The notes beneath the pieces were generated by a model. That model ran no database searches, was not told where the DNA came from, and was given only the letters and a program-made list of their open reading frames with translations. This document shows, piece after piece, positions 4,287 to 23,654 of a stretch of 39,078 bases of DNA. Source of the stretch: Rubrobacter sp. (GTDB lineage Bacteria; Actinomycetota; Rubrobacteria; Rubrobacterales; Rubrobacteraceae); NCBI GenBank assembly GCA_013695475.1, contig JACDAJ010000003.1, positions 1 to 39,078 on the forward strand. The letters run 5' to 3'. The position numbers and the translations under genes were made by a program. The first letter of the stretch is position 1, and every line of letters starts with the position of its first letter.

Positions 4287-5087
4287 ATGATAGCCGCGAC
4301 CCTCCTCCTCCTCGGCTTCGCAACCACCATCCTCGCCTTCGAGGCGGCGAAAGGATTTTTGCCGAAGCGCCCGAACTTCGCCGGAAAACAGATTCCGACC
4401 GCCGCCGGAGTATGTTTCTCGCCCGTGATACTCGCCACGATATTGCTCGGGGCCGGCTCGCTCATCGGGGTTTGGTGGGACGGCACCTTGCTCGCCGGAT
4501 ACGTGCTTCTCGCGGTTCTCGTCGGTTTTTACGACGACGTCCGGGGCGGCGGCGAGGCGCGGGGTTTCAAGGGGCATCTCGGCTCCCTCGTCGGCGGCCG
4601 CATGACGACGGGGATGGTGAAGATAGTCGCGCTGGTTTTGGGCGCGCTCTTCGTCGGGAGGTATTTCTATGGATACACCTTCGAGGGTCTTTACGCGGCC
4701 TTCATCCTCGCCGGATGCGCGAACCTCGGAAATTTGTTCGATGTCCGTCCGGGGCGGACCATGAAGTTCGTCGGGCCTCCGGCGGCGGCGATGCTTTTTC
4801 TCGCGCCGGGATGGGCGATGCTCGCGATGGTCGGGGTTTTCGGTGGTGTCCTCTCGCTGTTTTATTTCGACCTCAAAGCGCGTATGATGCTCGGCGATGC
4901 GGGGGCGGCCGGAGTCGGGGCTTTGCTCGGCTGCCTCGTCGCGGCGACCGGGCCGGGCCTCGCCTGGTGGGCCGCGGGGGCTTTCGTCCTCGTCCTCACC
5001 CTCGTCGCCGAGTTCTCTTCGATATCCAGATTTATAGAGGAGGTTTCTGTTTTGCGTTGGTTGGATAATTTGGGGCGCGGCGAATGA
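4287..5087 (+). CDS. MraY/WecA-like glycosyl-phosphoryl transferase (polyprenyl-phosphate sugar-1-phosphate transferase family)
   Basis: Multi-[29 protein letters not shown] and [10 protein letters not shown] motifs in order. Confidence 0.75.
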
Positions 5088-6760
5088 GCGCCATGAACGG
5101 CGAGACGAAATACATCTTCGTGACCGGGGGCGTCGTCTCCTCCATCGGCAAAGGCACGTCCGCCGCCGCGCTCGCCATGCTCCTGAAAAGCCGCGGTTTC
5201 AAAGTCGTCCTCCAGAAATTCGACCCGTACATAAACGTGGACCCCGGAACCATGAACCCGTACCAGCACGGCGAAGTCTTCGTCACCGACGACGGCGCCG
5301 AGACGGACCTCGACCTCGGCCATTATGAACGCTTCCTCGACGAGAACCTCGGCAAGCTCTCGAATGTGACGACCGGGAGCGTGTACTGGGAAGTCATCCA
5401 GCGCGAGAGGCGCGGCGACTACCTCGGCGCCACCGTCCAGGTCATCCCCCATATAACGAACGAGATAAAAAATAGAATCGGCCGCCTCGGCAAGGACAAG
5501 GACATCGTCATCACCGAAATAGGCGGCACCGTCGGCGACATCGAAAGCCTCCCGTTTTTGGAGGCCATCCGCCAGTTTCGGAACGACGTCGGACGGAAGA
5601 ATGTTTTGTATATGCACGTCTCGTATGTGCCGTACATTGATGCCGCCGGGGAACTCAAAACGAAGCCGACGCAGCATTCGACGCAGCGGCTGCGTGAGAT
5701 CGGCATTTCGGCGGATGTCCTCCTCTGCCGCGCCGACCGCCCGATAGCCGAGGACATCCGGAAGAAGATCGCGCTTTTCGGCGACGCCGACCTCGACTCT
5801 GTGATACCCGCGGAGGACGTCGAGACGCTTTACGACATCCCGCTCCACCTCCACGACGCGGGCCTCGACGAACTCGTCCTCGACAAGCTGAACCTCGCCG
5901 CCCCGCCCGCCGACCTCGAAAAATGGCGCAACCTCGTCGGCCGCCTGAAATCCGCCGAGGAGACGGTGAAGGTCGCGGTCGTCGGCAAATATATAAAACT
6001 CCGCGACGCATACCTCTCGGTCGTGGAGGCTTTGGAACACGCGGGCGGCGCCCACGACGTGAGGGTGGAGCTCGACTGGGTTGACTCCGAGCAGCTCGAC
6101 ACCCCGGAGAACGTCGCCGGGCGCCTCTCCTCCGCCGACGGGATGGTCGTCTTCGGGGGCTTCGGGGAGCGCGGCGTCGAGGGGATGGTCGGGGCGGCGC
6201 GGTACGCCCGAGAGAGCGGGAAGCCGTACCTCGGGCTGTGCCTCGGGATGCAGATCGCCGTCGTCGAGTACGCCCGGAACGTCGCCGGGCTGGAGATGGC
6301 GAACTCCACCGAGTTCGACGAGGAGGCTCCGCACCCGGTCGTCGGCATCATGCCCGACCAGGTCGGCGTGGACCTCGGAGGCACGATGCGCCTCGGAAGC
6401 TGGCCGTGCAAACTCGCGCCCGGAACCCTCGCCGCCGAAGTCTACGGGACCGACCTCGTCCACGAGCGCCACCGCCACCGCTACGAGGTGAACAACGACT
6501 ACCGCGAAGTCCTCGAGGACGCCGGGCTTGTCTTCTCCGGCACCTCCCCCGACGGGAAGCTCGTCGAGATCTCCGAACTGAAGGGCCACCCGTTCTTCAT
6601 CGGCAGCCAGTTCCACCCCGAATTCAAAAGCCGCCCCCTCCGCCCGCACCCACTCTTCGACGGCTTCGTCGGAGCCTGCGTCGAAGAAGGAAGCGAGGGG
6701 CGCCGGAGCGGGGAAGCCCGCGCCGTCGCCGAACCCGCGACCGAACGGCCCTCGAGCTGA
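5084..6760 (+). CDS. pyrG: CTP synthase
   Basis: [31 protein letters not shown]-terminus and GATase domain [16 protein letters not shown]; overlaps upstream ORF by 4 bp. Confidence 0.97.
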
Positions 6761-17759: not shown

Positions 17760-20273
17760 ATGAAGGCGATAATAATGGCGGGCGGGCAGGGTACGCGGCT
17801 CCGGCCACTCACGAGCGAGCAGCCGAAGCCCATGATCCGGATAGCGAACCTCCCGTGCATGGAGCATATAGTGAATCTTTTGAAAAGCCACGACTTCACC
17901 GACATTGTGGTGACGCTTCAATTCATGCCCGAGGACATCCGGGACTATTTCGGCGACGGCTCCCAGTGGGGCGTGAACATGAAATACTCCGTCGAGGACG
18001 CCCCCGCCGGAACCGCCGGCTCCGTGAAGATGGCCGAGTCCGAACTCGACCTCGCGGACGGCGAGCCGTTCCTCGTCATAAGCGGCGACGCCCTCACCGA
18101 CGCCGACCTCACCCGCCTCGCCGAGTTCCACGGGGAGAAAGGCTCCGACGCGACGATGGTCCTGAAAAGCGTCGAGAACCCTTTGGATTTCGGCATCGTC
18201 ATCACGGAGGAGGACGGCCGGATCTCCCGCTTCCTCGAGAAGCCGGCGTGGGGGCAGGTTTTCTCGGACACGGTGAACACCGGCATATACCTCCTCGACG
18301 GCTCGGTGATGGATAAAATACCCGACCCGGAGTCCGAGGGCGAGTACGATTTCTCGGAGGATCTCTTCCCGGCGATGCTCGACGACGGACGCCCGATGTT
18401 CGGGTACGTCACCGAGGAATACTGGGAGGACATCGGCACCTTGGAGCAATACTCCGCCGCGCAGAGGGATGTCCTCGACGGCTCTGTGAAGGGCGTGAGG
18501 CCGCCGGGAACGCGCCTCCGGGAGAATATATACGTCGGGAGCCGGGCGCAGCTCGACGAGGGGGAACTCGAGGGGCCGGTCGTCATCGGGGAGAACGTCC
18601 GGATTGACGAGGGGGCGAAGGTGAGTCCGTATTCGGTGATCGGCTCGAACGTCGTCGTCTCCGCCGGGGCGAGGGTCGAGCGATCCGTCGTCGCCGACGG
18701 GTCGTACATCGGCGAGGGCGCGGAGCTTGTGGACACCCTCGTCGGCCGCTCGTCATACGTCCAGGCGAGGGCGAGGCTTCTCGAGAGAAGCTCCCTCGGC
18801 GACGACGTCATCGTGGGCGAGGGCGCGACGGTCTCGCCGGAGGTGAAGGTTTATCCTCACAAGACCATCGAGGACGGGGCGAATGTCACGCAAAGCCTCA
18901 TATACGAGACGATGGGGCTTCGGACGGTTTTCAAGGGGGGGAAGGTCGCGGGGAAGTTCAATGTGGATCTCACCCCCGAGGTCCTCATCCGGCTCGCCTC
19001 CTCGTTCGGGACGACGCTCGACCCCGGCGCGATCGTGACCCTCGGCCGCGACTCTTCGCCCGCCGCCCAAGTCGCTAAAAGGGCGATGACGGCGGCTCTC
19101 CTCGGGACGGGGGTGAACGTCCGCGACCTCCGGGCGGCGCATGCCGGGGTCGTCCGCCACGACGTTTTGGCGGGGAAGTCGTCGGCGGGGGCGCATCTCC
19201 GCCGGGGCGACGACCCCGACGACATCGAGGTTCTCTTCTTCTCCTCCGACGCGACCCCGATGACGGAGTCCGACGAGCGGAGCGTGGAGAAGGTTTTTGT
19301 GAGGGAGGAGTACCGGCGGGCGCATGGCGGGGACGACATCGGGGAGCTTATTTATCCGGCGCGGGCGGTCGAGCAGTATGTGGAGAGGCTCGAGAGGGCG
19401 TCGGACGTGTCGAAGACGTCGGGTTCGACGATCGTGGTGGATTTCTCGGGGGGTGTGGCGAACCTCGTCGCGAGCCGGGCTTTTTCGAGGCTCGGGATAA
19501 ACGCGGTCGTCGTCTCGGGTTTCGCGAACGCGAACGTGGTTGGATCCGCCCCCGGGATGGGCTTCGAGGAGTCGGTCGAGCGCGTCGGGGGGATCGTCCC
19601 GACCGTGGACGCGGCGTTCGGGTGCGTCGTCGGCCCCACGGGGGAGGACATTCAGTTCGTTGACGACCGGGGCGGATACATCCCGCCGGATATCATGCTC
19701 GCGTGCCTCATCGAGCGTATGGAGCCGAGCAAAGTCGTCCTCCCGGTGAGCCTGAGCTCGGAGTACGGGCGGCTCGTCGAGGCGGGCGGGGGCGTTTTGT
19801 CGGAGAGCCGGACGGGGCTTGGGAATATCTCCATACAGGCCGCCTCCTCCTCGGCGGACATCGGGGCGACGGGCGACGGATGCTATGTCTTCCCGGATTT
19901 CCTCCCCGCCCCCGACTGCTTCATGGTCATATCATGCGTCCTCAAACTGTTCGGGGCGGGTTCTTCGGGCGCCCCCCTCTCTGAGGCGAGGCGGCGTTTC
20001 GGTGACTCGTTCGGGGGTGTCTCGCGCGAGGTACTCGATTGTCCGTGGGGGGCGAAGGGGCGTGTGATGCGCGGCCTCGCGGAGAGGTTCGGCGGCGACC
20101 CCGACGCCATCCTCACAGACGGAGTGAAGCTCTCGGTGGACGGAGGGTGGGTTCTCATGCTCCCCGACCCCGACAACCCGCTCTTCCACGTGTACGCCGA
20201 GACCGACTCCGACCCGGAGGGAGTCAAGTCCGAGTATTCAGATCTCGTCAAATCCCTCATAGAATCCGAATGA
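17760..20273 (+). CDS. Fused sugar-phosphate nucleotidyltransferase (mannose-1-phosphate guanylyltransferase-like) / phosphohexomutase-like protein
   Basis: MKAIIMAGGQGTRLRPLTSEQPKPM, hexapeptide repeats, then a phosphohexomutase-like region from about YETMGLRTVFKGGKVAGKFNVDL onwards. Confidence 0.88.
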   Translation: MKAIIMAGGQGTRLRPLTSEQPKPMIRIANLPCMEHIVNLLKSHDFTDIVVTLQFMPEDIRDYFGDGSQWGVNMKYSVEDAPAGTAGSVKMAESELDLADGEPFLVISGDALTDADLTRLAEFHGEKGSDATMVLKSVENPLDFGIVITEEDGRISRFLEKPAWGQVFSDTVNTGIYLLDGSVMDKIPDPESEGEYDFSEDLFPAMLDDGRPMFGYVTEEYWEDIGTLEQYSAAQRDVLDGSVKGVRPPGTRLRENIYVGSRAQLDEGELEGPVVIGENVRIDEGAKVSPYSVIGSNVVVSAGARVERSVVADGSYIGEGAELVDTLVGRSSYVQARARLLERSSLGDDVIVGEGATVSPEVKVYPHKTIEDGANVTQSLIYETMGLRTVFKGGKVAGKFNVDLTPEVLIRLASSFGTTLDPGAIVTLGRDSSPAAQVAKRAMTAALLGTGVNVRDLRAAHAGVVRHDVLAGKSSAGAHLRRGDDPDDIEVLFFSSDATPMTESDERSVEKVFVREEYRRAHGGDDIGELIYPARAVEQYVERLERASDVSKTSGSTIVVDFSGGVANLVASRAFSRLGINAVVVSGFANANVVGSAPGMGFEESVERVGGIVPTVDAAFGCVVGPTGEDIQFVDDRGGYIPPDIMLACLIERMEPSKVVLPVSLSSEYGRLVEAGGGVLSESRTGLGNISIQAASSSADIGATGDGCYVFPDFLPAPDCFMVISCVLKLFGAGSSGAPLSEARRRFGDSFGGVSREVLDCPWGAKGRVMRGLAERFGGDPDAILTDGVKLSVDGGWVLMLPDPDNPLFHVYAETDSDPEGVKSEYSDLVKSLIESE

Positions 20274-20316
20274 GGGCGCGCCTGGCGGAATCGTGGCGGA
20301 ATCGGAGACAATCGGA

Positions 20317-20352
20317 AACCGCCCTTTTGCGGGTGTTCAGCGGTTGTTTTTG
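20317..20352 (+). terminator. Probable intrinsic terminator after the nucleotidyltransferase gene
   Basis: aaccgc (20317-20322) ... gcggtt (20340-20345) with internal ccc/ggg pairing, followed by gttttt. Confidence 0.5.
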
Positions 20353-20405
20353 CTTGAGTGGGAGATATGTCGGTCAAAAGACTGTACGTAAGGTAGAGGG
20401 GAAGT

Positions 20406-20411
20406 TATACT
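20406..20411 (+). promoter_or_regulatory. Putative -10 element TATACT 7 nt upstream of the rsiG-like ATG (leaderless configuration)
   Basis: TATACT-tccggtt-ATG(20419). Confidence 0.5.
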
Positions 20412-20418
20412 TCCGGTT

Positions 20419-20745
20419 ATGGGTGAAGAACGAAAAGGAGCGGGCGGTGGGGCGGGTGGTTTTGACTGGGCCGCCGGCTCCGAGGACTTGACGGCGTTGA
20501 GCGTCGAGGAGTTGAAGGGCCATTTGGAGGCGTTCGCTGAGGAGGAGCGGGAGGTCAGCTACCGGAGGAGGGTTTTGCAGGGGCGCATCGATCTCATAAG
20601 GGCCGAGATAGCGGGGCGCGGCGGCGACCTCTTCGCCTCCCCCGAGGATCTCGCCCGGGCCCTCCTCGGGGAGTCCGGCGGCGAAGGCTCCGGCGGCGGG
20701 CTTGGCTCTTCGCCCCGATCCCCCGAGGGGCGTGGCGGCCCGTGA
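20419..20745 (+). CDS. rsiG: RsiG-like anti-sigma factor (single c-di-GMP signature motif)
   Basis: Helical 108-aa protein containing E-REV-S-YR-R-RVL-Q-GRI-D, an exact match to the published RsiG pattern E(X)3S(X)2R(X)3Q(X)3D. Confidence 0.78.
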   Translation: MGEERKGAGGGAGGFDWAAGSEDLTALSVEELKGHLEAFAEEEREVSYRRRVLQGRIDLIRAEIAGRGGDLFASPEDLARALLGESGGEGSGGGLGSSPRSPEGRGGP

Positions 20746-21197
20746 GCCTTTGCCCGGAGTGCGGCTCGGAGGTTGCCGTCGGGATGAAGTTCTGCTCGGA
20801 GTGCGGCACACGCCTCGACCCCGGCGGGACGACGGTCTCGTACTCGCCGAGCTTCGCGGAGGACGACGACGAGGCGACCTCCTCCTCGGTTCCGGCCAAG
20901 GGCGCGGCCCTCATAGAGCTCGACCAGGTCGAGGGGACCGCCGGGAGGCGCATGCACGACGTCGGGGTCGAGGCCGTGACCATCGGCCGCGTCCCCCAGT
21001 GCGACATCTTCCTCGACGACGTCACAGTCTCGAGGAAGCACGCCGAGGTTCTCCGGGGCGACCACGGATTCAGGATACGCGACGTCGGGAGCCTCAACGG
21101 CACGTACGTCAACCGCGTCCGCGTGGACTCCGTGGACCTCCGGAACGGCGACGAGATACAGGTCGGCAAATACCGATTCAAGTTCGTGTTCACATAA
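20742..21197 (+). CDS. Zinc-ribbon plus FHA domain protein (GarA/OdhI-like)
   Basis: CPECGSEVAVGMKFCSECG zinc ribbon; FHA core TIGRVPQCDIFLDDVTVSRKHAEV...DVGSLNGTYVNRVRV. Confidence 0.9.
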   Translation: MSLCPECGSEVAVGMKFCSECGTRLDPGGTTVSYSPSFAEDDDEATSSSVPAKGAALIELDQVEGTAGRRMHDVGVEAVTIGRVPQCDIFLDDVTVSRKHAEVLRGDHGFRIRDVGSLNGTYVNRVRVDSVDLRNGDEIQVGKYRFKFVFT

Positions 21198-21299
21198 TAC
21201 GGGAGACTTCCAGGCGAGGCGGCCTCCCTCGGCCCGGGGGGGGGCCAGTGGGGCATCAACATCCGGGCATTCAGATGGAGAGGAATGGAGTGATCTAGT

Positions 21300-21995
21300 T
21301 TGGAGAACGGCGGAGGCGGCAAGGACAGTTTCACGATCGGCGAGGTGGTTGAGAGGCTCAAGCCGGAGTTCCCGAGCCTCTCGGTGAGCAAGATCCGGTA
21401 CCTCGAGCGCCGGCGGCTCATAAACCTGAACCGGACGCGCGGCGGATACCGCCTCTTCTCCGGGCAGGACGTCGAGCTTCTCAGGTACATCCTCACGCTC
21501 CAGGACAAGGAGTACCTCCCGCTCAAGGTGATAAAGAAGCGCATCGAGGGCGGCGCCCCGGTCATGGCGATGTCGAAGGACTCGGCGGGCGACCTTTCGT
21601 CGGTCCTCGAGGACCGGGTGTACTCGAAGGACGAGCTGGCCGACGCGCTCGAGGCGGACACGCGCTTCGTCGAGGAGCTCCTCACGGTTCAGGTCATAGG
21701 GAGGACGGGCGAGCTCACGCAGCGCGACCTCGAGATCGCCCGCATGGCGTACGAGATGGCGAAGCACTCGATACAGCCGCGCCACCTCCGGGGCATGATG
21801 GCCGCCGTGGACCGGGAGGCCGCCATGTTCAAGCAGATACTCAACCCCGAGCTCCGCAGCGGCGACGAGCAGCGCGTGGCCGAGGCGATGGCGAAGGCCC
21901 GCCACCTCGCCTCCGTGGACTCCCGCCTCAAAGAGCTCATGATGGCGAACGTGATCGAAGCCTTCGCCCCGTCGCCGTCGGACGGCCGCCCGTGA
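21300..21995 (+). CDS. MerR-family regulator, FtsR-like
   Basis: FTIGEVVERLKPEFPSLSVSKIRYLERRRLINLNRTRGGYRLFS MerR HTH; located after the FHA gene as in other Actinobacteria. Confidence 0.87.
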   Translation: MENGGGGKDSFTIGEVVERLKPEFPSLSVSKIRYLERRRLINLNRTRGGYRLFSGQDVELLRYILTLQDKEYLPLKVIKKRIEGGAPVMAMSKDSAGDLSSVLEDRVYSKDELADALEADTRFVEELLTVQVIGRTGELTQRDLEIARMAYEMAKHSIQPRHLRGMMAAVDREAAMFKQILNPELRSGDEQRVAEAMAKARHLASVDSRLKELMMANVIEAFAPSPSDGRP

Positions 21996-22576
21996 GCGGA
22001 TCCGACAGCGCAGGCCACCCCGACGCCCCCGACGCCCCCTCCGAGCGGGTCCGGGCGCTCATCCGGTCGGTTCCGGGGTTCCCGAGGGCGGGCGTGTCGT
22101 ACAAGGACATAACGCCCCTGATCGAGGACGGGGGGGGGATGCGCCTCGCCGTCGACGCGCTCGCGCAGGCGATAGACGCGGCCGGCATCGAGTACGACCG
22201 CATCGTGTCCGCGGAGGCCCGGGGCTTCGTGTTCGGGACGGCGCTGGCGTACCGCGCCCGGAGGGGGATCGTGCTCGCGAGGAAGCCCGGCAAGCTGCCC
22301 CGCGAGACGATATCCGCCTCGTACGACCTCGAGTACGGCTCCGACTCCCTCGAGGTCCACGCCGACTCGATCCCGCCCGGCGCCCGCGTCCTCGTCGCCG
22401 ACGACCTCCTAGCCACCGGTGGCACCGCCCGCGCCATGTGCCGTATCGTCGAGAACGCGGGCGGTGCCGTCGCCGGGGCCGCCTTCATCATCGAGCTCGG
22501 ATACCTCCGGGGCCGAACCCTCCTCGACCCATACAAAACCGTCTCCCTCGTGAACTATGAAGACCCCTCCGAATAA
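21992..22576 (+). CDS. apt: Adenine phosphoribosyltransferase
   Basis: IRSVPGFPRAGVSYKDITPLIEDG; VLVADDLLATGGTARAM PRPP-binding motif. Confidence 0.93.
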   Translation: MSGSDSAGHPDAPDAPSERVRALIRSVPGFPRAGVSYKDITPLIEDGGGMRLAVDALAQAIDAAGIEYDRIVSAEARGFVFGTALAYRARRGIVLARKPGKLPRETISASYDLEYGSDSLEVHADSIPPGARVLVADDLLATGGTARAMCRIVENAGGAVAGAAFIIELGYLRGRTLLDPYKTVSLVNYEDPSE

Positions 22577-23654
22577 CCCGGACAAAAGGGCGGCGGAGCC
22601 CGTCCCGGGCATAGGGGCAATGGAACCGGAAAGCCCCCCCGAGTCCCTCCCCGAAATCGTCGAAAACCTTGAAAACGTCCCCGTCGAGCACGCGGGATCC
22701 TTCCCTCATACGGGCGTTCCGACCGAGACCCCCCGTCCTTCACCCCCCGTCGAGGATCTCCTCGCCGTCTTTCTGAGGACGCTCTCCAGCCCCGAGACGA
22801 TTAAAACCTATAATACGGAGATACGTATGTTCGCCTCGTACATCGAGGGGGAGCTCGGGGTGCCGCTCGGGGGGATCGGGGCGGAGAACCTCTCACTTTA
22901 CCGTGAGCGCCTCATAAAGGAGTACGCGCCCGCGACGGCGGCGAAGAAGCTGACGGCGGTGAGGAGGTTCCTCGTCTTCACGCACATGGGCGGGGTGACG
23001 CGGCTCGGCCCCGACGCGCTGCGGTACTTCGCGAAAAGTCCGAGGGTCTCGGAGGACTCCTCGTACAACGTCCTGACCGAGGAGGAGCTTTCGAGGATGC
23101 TCGGGCAAGCCCGGGTGGAAAGCTACCGGGACTATGTGATCCTGGCCGTCATGGCCTCGTGCGGCGTGCGGGAGGCCGAACTCGTCAGCCTCCGGATAGG
23201 CGATTTCCGGGAGGTCGGGGGAGGCGAGGACGGGGAGCCTCCCATACAAGTCAGGGTTGAGGGGAAGGGGGGGAGGATCCGCAACGTCGCCGCCTCCCCC
23301 GACCTCTGGCGAGTCGTCCAGCGATACGTCCTCCTCACCGGACGCAGCCTGAACTCGCGCTCTGACTCCCGCCGACCCCTCTTCGAGTCGAGGGAGGGCG
23401 ACGCGAGGCCACTCACGACCCGCTCCATAAGGAACATAGTCAAGAAATACGTCCGGAGGGCCGGAATAACGAAAGCCATATCCCCGCACTCCATACGCCA
23501 CACCGTGGGGACGAACATGGCCGTCAACGAAGCACCGCTCCTAGTCATACAGCAGTTCCTCGGCCACTCGGATCCGAAGACCACCCTCCGGTACATAAGA
23601 AGAGCCGAAGAACTCGCCAACAAGGCATACCAATATAATACGCTCCCGATCTAG
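22557..23654 (+). CDS. Tyrosine recombinase (XerC/D-like) with extended N-terminus
   Basis: SAM-like N-domain; catalytic set ...SCGVREAELVSL, SPHSIRHTVGTNMA, QQFLGHSDPKTTLRYIR. Confidence 0.88.
   Translation: MKTPPNNPDKRAAEPVPGIGAMEPESPPESLPEIVENLENVPVEHAGSFPHTGVPTETPRPSPPVEDLLAVFLRTLSSPETIKTYNTEIRMFASYIEGELGVPLGGIGAENLSLYRERLIKEYAPATAAKKLTAVRRFLVFTHMGGVTRLGPDALRYFAKSPRVSEDSSYNVLTEEELSRMLGQARVESYRDYVILAVMASCGVREAELVSLRIGDFREVGGGEDGEPPIQVRVEGKGGRIRNVAASPDLWRVVQRYVLLTGRSLNSRSDSRRPLFESREGDARPLTTRSIRNIVKKYVRRAGITKAISPHSIRHTVGTNMAVNEAPLLVIQQFLGHSDPKTTLRYIRRAEELANKAYQYNTLPI

What the first reader, a model, noticed from the sequence alone, without database searches (positions are those of the whole stretch)
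20419..20745. One-motif RsiG homologue at the head of a GarA/FtsR-type operon
The 108-aa product contains E-REV-S-YR-R-RVL-Q-GRI-D (DNA 20545-20592), an exact match to E(X)3S(X)2R(X)3Q(X)3D, the c-di-GMP signature of the Streptomyces anti-sigma RsiG. Streptomyces RsiG carries two copies. A single-copy, homodimer-forming version has been described from Rubrobacter, so this looks like the ancestral type. What stands out is the context: its stop overlaps the start of a zinc-ribbon/FHA gene and it heads an apparent rsiG-FHA-ftsR-apt-recombinase unit. That could link c-di-GMP signalling with Ser/Thr kinase and cell-division control. No WhiG-type sigma gene lies in this window.
Basis: partly seen in the sequence, partly recalled or inferred. 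Interest (0 to 1): 0.72.

Follow-up and report, generated by a model that had tools for sequence, protein, structure and literature searches.

The report
Single-motif c-di-GMP anti-sigma factor RsiG
This small gene of a soil Rubrobacter makes the already described short form of RsiG, a protein thought to hold the WhiG transcription switch shut when the signal molecule c-di-GMP is plentiful; what appears new is that every short RsiG with readable flanks sits just ahead of two regulator genes (garA and ftsR), while the long forms in Streptomyces-like bacteria, with one exception, do not.

Summary
The 108-aa ORF at 20419-20745 is a single-motif RsiG: Pfam RsiG 70.3 bits against a cut-off of 27, and best PDB match the R. 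radiotolerans RsiG structures (E 9e-25), with an intact E-x3-S-x2-R-x3-Q-x3-D motif. Its expected partner WhiG lies elsewhere in the genome, with every listed c-di-GMP-contact residue, alongside nine GGDEF domains. So this is a new member of a described family, not a new kind.

The context is not unusual for this gene; it is the rule. In all 157 readable single-motif loci (about 146 distinct) garA lies downstream on the same strand, nearly always followed by ftsR. In 40 of 41 twin-motif loci it does not. The papers I could search do not report this.

The proposed link to kinase and cell-division control is not shown. RsiG tracks WhiG (92/97 RsiG genomes have it, 2/20 RsiG-less ones do), and where both are lost garA-ftsR can stay behind.

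Two side findings deserve follow-up: an independent second duplication to twin-motif RsiG at the ancestral locus (G137), and a Rubrobacteraceae subclade that lost the c-di-GMP motif together with contact residues of WhiG.

The parts
20419..20745 (+). rsiG: single-motif anti-sigma factor, 108 aa
   Evidence: Pfam PF22802 70.3 bits; PDB 7LQ4 E 9.1e-25; AF2 model: one long helix 29-66 plus short C-terminal helix 75-82
20545..20592 (+). c-di-GMP motif E43-x3-S47-x2-R50-x3-Q54-x3-D58
   Evidence: translation; E, S, R and D invariant in the 31-sequence alignment of single-motif relatives
20742..20745 (+). 4-bp overlap GTGA: rsiG stop and garA start
   Evidence: sequence; the same rsiG-stop to GarA-cysteine spacing (6 nt) in most Rubrobacteraceae loci
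20742..21197 (+). garA/odhI-like gene: N-terminal zinc ribbon plus FHA domain
   Evidence: Pfam Zn_Ribbon_1 and FHA; best PDB matches GarA/Rv1827 E 2e-23 and OdhI; NCBIfam OdhI best but below its equivalog cut-off
21300..21995 (+). ftsR: MerR-family regulator
   Evidence: NCBIfam NF050798 FtsR 174.6 bits over cut-off 150; PDB Rv1828
21992..22576 (+). apt: adenine phosphoribosyltransferase, overlaps ftsR stop
   Evidence: NCBIfam TIGR01090 188.7 bits over cut-off 185.85
22557..23654 (+). XerC/XerD-type tyrosine recombinase
   Evidence: Pfam Phage_integrase; XerA/C/D models best, all below equivalog cut-offs
17760..20273 (+). manC-like gene: NTP transferase + hexapeptide + phosphomannomutase-like domains; conserved upstream neighbour
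   Evidence: Pfam; adjacent to rsiG in most Rubrobacteraceae and in several other families

Best explanation
The gene encodes a homodimer-forming, single-motif RsiG. Two copies pair as an antiparallel coiled coil and bind two c-di-GMP molecules, one motif per subunit (shown for the R. radiotolerans ortholog, inferred here). The loaded dimer clamps the sigma2 and sigma4 domains of the WhiG encoded on another contig and keeps WhiG-dependent genes off while c-di-GMP is high; when c-di-GMP falls WhiG is released (inferred). The gene overlaps garA by 4 bp (shown) and is probably co-translated with garA and co-transcribed with garA and ftsR (inferred). The linkage is ancestral and maintained, most simply as shared housekeeping-type expression; direct action of RsiG on GarA or FtsR is not needed.
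For: Family membership and intact motif. Own WhiG matches 7LQ4 chain A at E 2e-71 and keeps the c-di-GMP contacts K53, G57, R58, T237, R239, K243 (residue list from PMC8325347). Nine GGDEF domains. AF2 model: one long helix plus a short C-terminal helix, as in RsiGRr. RsiG and WhiG co-occur: 92/97 RsiG genomes have WhiG, 2/20 RsiG-less genomes do. In RsiG-less, WhiG-less genomes G008, G040, G054 garA-ftsR follows manC directly. rsiG-garA-ftsR order and tight spacing conserved across many families. No terminator-like site from 20200 to 22100.
Against: No binding or expression data for this protein. The own WhiG gene lacks about 25 aa of the sigma3-sigma4 linker that most other Rubrobacteraceae WhiGs keep, so the pair could differ from R. 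radiotolerans or the assembly could be faulty. No WhiG-type promoter was found upstream of the pilMNO-like genes, and a genome-wide consensus scan was not above its control, so the type IV pilus regulon is not confirmed here. The strict neighbour conservation could still mean a functional tie to GarA/FtsR. The co-occurrence test ignores phylogeny.
Confidence: 0.88

Rival explanations
1. RsiG works jointly with GarA and FtsR: the operon is a node in which c-di-GMP (RsiG), Ser/Thr phosphorylation (GarA) and division control (FtsR) meet, by direct contact or shared dosage.
For: Neighbour order kept in all 157 readable single-motif loci over many families; 4-bp overlap conserved in most Rubrobacteraceae; the TT-x-x-Y/F segment after the zinc ribbon resembles the GarA phospho-threonine motif (GarA motif from memory); the FtsR ligand is unknown (PMC6683498).
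Against: garA-ftsR stays when rsiG is lost (G008, G040, G054) and rsiG leaves the locus in nearly all twin-motif lineages; RsiG loss goes with WhiG loss. garA-ftsR is a conserved pair in actinobacteria without mention of rsiG (PMC6683498).
Confidence: 0.12
2. The ORF is a coiled-coil protein that carries the motif by chance and has another function.
For: Small, charged, helix-rich protein with low-complexity ends.
Against: Curated family match far over cut-off, PDB hit E 9e-25, same locus in the R. radiotolerans-like genome G005, motif invariant in relatives.
Confidence: 0.01
3. It still binds WhiG but no longer as a c-di-GMP switch, as suspected for the g13 subclade.
For: Such loss appears to have happened in relatives.
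Against: Motif and the WhiG contact residues are all intact in this genome.
Confidence: 0.03

Closest known systems
Single-motif RsiG of Rubrobacter radiotolerans (PDB 7LQ2, 7LQ3, 7LQ4; PMC8325347)
   Same: Single E-x3-S-x2-R-x3-Q-x3-D motif, N- and C-terminal extensions, cognate WhiG; same manC-rsiG-garA-ftsR-apt-xer locus in genome G005, whose RsiG helix and WhiG match the 7LQ4 chains as aligned.
   Different: 72% identical over the 58-aa core, less outside it; the own WhiG lacks a linker segment.
Twin-motif RsiG of Streptomyces venezuelae (PDB 6PFJ, 6PFV)
   Same: Same motif and WhiG target; homologous helix (E 3e-9).
   Different: Two motifs in one chain, monomeric; not next to garA-ftsR in any of the seven named Streptomyces loci.
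garA/odhI-ftsR cluster of actinobacteria (PMC6683498)
   Same: GarA-like FHA gene followed by FtsR.
   Different: There the upstream region was reported to vary; in twin-motif genomes surveyed here it is mostly a gcvH-like gene, whereas in single-motif genomes it is rsiG.

Membership tests
RsiG (PF22802) | Score over the curated family cut-off | tested here: met
   70.3 bits, cut-off 27
RsiG (PF22802) | Intact c-di-GMP motif E-x3-S-x2-R-x3-[QH]-x3-D | tested here: met
   residues 43-58
single-motif RsiG | Exactly one motif helix per chain | tested here: met
   one Pfam stretch; one long helix in the AF2 model
single-motif RsiG | Cognate WhiG in the genome, with c-di-GMP contact residues | tested here: met
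   G000:C256, residues conserved
single-motif RsiG | Homodimer that binds two c-di-GMP and WhiG | not testable with these tools
   only single-chain prediction available
single-motif RsiG | WhiG-type promoters at type IV pilus and GGDEF genes (R. radiotolerans) | tested here: inconclusive
   consensus scan not above control; none upstream of pilMNO-like genes
GarA/OdhI | FHA domain closest to GarA/OdhI, threonine phospho-motif upstream | tested here: inconclusive
   best PDB hits GarA/OdhI but below the NCBIfam OdhI equivalog cut-off; TT-x-x-Y segment present
FtsR | Over the NCBIfam FtsR equivalog cut-off | tested here: met
   174.6 against 150

The most novel reading that the evidence does not exclude
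The rsiG-garA-ftsR unit is an ancestral regulatory module of deep-branching Actinomycetota in which c-di-GMP signalling is physically or dosage-coupled to the GarA phospho-switch and FtsR, and the module broke up when RsiG became a single-chain twin-motif protein.
Probability: 0.12. Interest if true: 0.75.

Novelty: new member of a known kind. Interest (0 to 1): 0.42.

Why it matters
The protein itself adds one more member to a described family. The survey it prompted is more useful: short RsiGs share one locus across Rubrobacteria, Thermoleophilia and also Coriobacteriia- and Anaerosomatales-labelled genomes, beyond the two classes named in the 2021 paper. That adds independent support for the short form being ancestral, points to the locus from which the gene moved, and supplies natural test cases: a second independent duplication and a subclade that seems to have dropped c-di-GMP from the RsiG-WhiG interface.

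Tried and rejected
A second own-genome match (C185, E 0.007) was rejected: it has an internal stop, and the Pfam model finds only one RsiG in this genome. The WhiG consensus promoter scan gave 169 hits against 213 for the reversed control, so it was not used as evidence. No WhiG-like promoter within two mismatches upstream of rsiG in 31 of 32 Rubrobacteraceae loci, so autoregulation by WhiG is not supported. Fold search was not run because a single long helix matches too much to be informative. The small conserved ORF between rsiG and garA in some families had no Pfam match over cut-off.

Full report
What is there. The ORF at 20419-20745 translates to 108 aa with the motif at the stated place. 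Pfam assigns RsiG at 70.3 bits. phmmer against PDB returns R. radiotolerans RsiG (7LQ4, E 9.1e-25) and S. venezuelae RsiG (6PFJ, E 3.1e-9). A model from 31 relatives has one confident helix, residues 29-66, and a short helix 75-82, mean pLDDT 71.8, which fits the single-motif protein, whose antiparallel pair forms only on dimerisation (PMC8325347).

Partner genes. The genome (3.31 Mb, 318 contigs, 92% complete) holds one FliA/WhiG-family sigma over the curated cut-off, at C256. It matches WhiG of 7LQ4 (E 2e-71) and keeps the residues that touch c-di-GMP. Nine GGDEF domains are present, and pilMNO-like genes on C264. I did not find WhiG-type promoters there.

Neighbours. The next gene is GarA/OdhI-like with an added zinc ribbon, then FtsR, apt and a Xer-type recombinase. 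The rsiG stop overlaps the garA start by 4 bp, and the corresponding spacing is the same in most Rubrobacteraceae loci.

Synteny survey. RsiG was found in 51 of 61 relatives and 245 of 397 genomes of the phylum. I fetched 119 flanking stretches and 80 named loci and searched them with profiles made from the window genes. All 157 single-motif loci with enough downstream sequence (the window among them) have garA within 2 kb on the same strand, nearly always followed by ftsR (complete or, at contig ends, cut off); two more single-motif loci end at a contig edge. Some genomes were fetched twice; 148 single-motif helices are distinct. Of 41 twin-motif loci, 40 have no garA downstream and one does. 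Named single-motif genomes include Rubrobacter, Solirubrobacter, Conexibacter, an Anaerosomatales MAG (L228) and a Coriobacteriia MAG (L291). In twin-motif genomes garA-ftsR is mostly preceded by a gcvH-like gene, recognised here only by its lipoyl-type motif.

What the linkage means. RsiG presence follows WhiG: 70 of 74 single-motif-locus and 22 of 23 twin-motif genomes have WhiG over the cut-off, against 2 of 20 RsiG-less genomes at least 90% complete (Fisher p about 9e-15, not corrected for phylogeny). In G008, G040 and G054 both rsiG and WhiG are undetected while manC-garA-ftsR remains. I therefore take WhiG as the functional partner and treat coupling to GarA/FtsR as unproven.

Side findings. 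In G137 a 174-aa frame carries two intact motifs at the ancestral locus; its two helices are sisters (support 0.755) inside a single-motif group (0.999), so this looks like a second, independent duplication. The tree rests on about 60 columns. Six genomes of genus g13 keep rsiG at the locus but have lost motif residues; in the four with a recovered WhiG, K53 is R and K243 is C or G, which suggests c-di-GMP has left the interface. These genomes are related, so this may be one event.

Literature. The searches I ran in the held library found no paper that joins RsiG with garA or ftsR; the FtsR paper says the region upstream of odhI/garA varies. Most subscription papers are not held, so absence is not proof.

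Noticed in passing
L147 (G137), 4980-5501, - strand: Twin-motif RsiG still upstream of garA-ftsR in a family of single-motif RsiGs; the two helices group together, pointing to an independent intragenic duplication.
   Followed up: partly
L091, L097, L103, L105, L107, L109 (genus g13): RsiG kept at the locus but c-di-GMP motif degenerate (S to A/G, R to H/L, Q mostly to R or L); WhiG contact residues K53 and K243 changed in the four genomes where WhiG was found.
   Followed up: partly
L119:13160-13935 (own WhiG, G000:C256): In-frame gap of about 78 nt in the sigma3-sigma4 linker compared with the same-genus genome G001; real deletion or assembly fault not resolved.
   Followed up: partly
e.g. 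L171, L157, L185, L228, L291 between rsiG and garA: Small ORF of roughly 80-110 aa, recognisably similar across several families, with no Pfam match over cut-off.
   Followed up: partly
G065 and G088 (family f22): WhiG over the cut-off without a detected RsiG.
   Followed up: no
G094, G137, G316: Several RsiG-family matches per genome, with two WhiG-family matches each at the search threshold.
   Followed up: no
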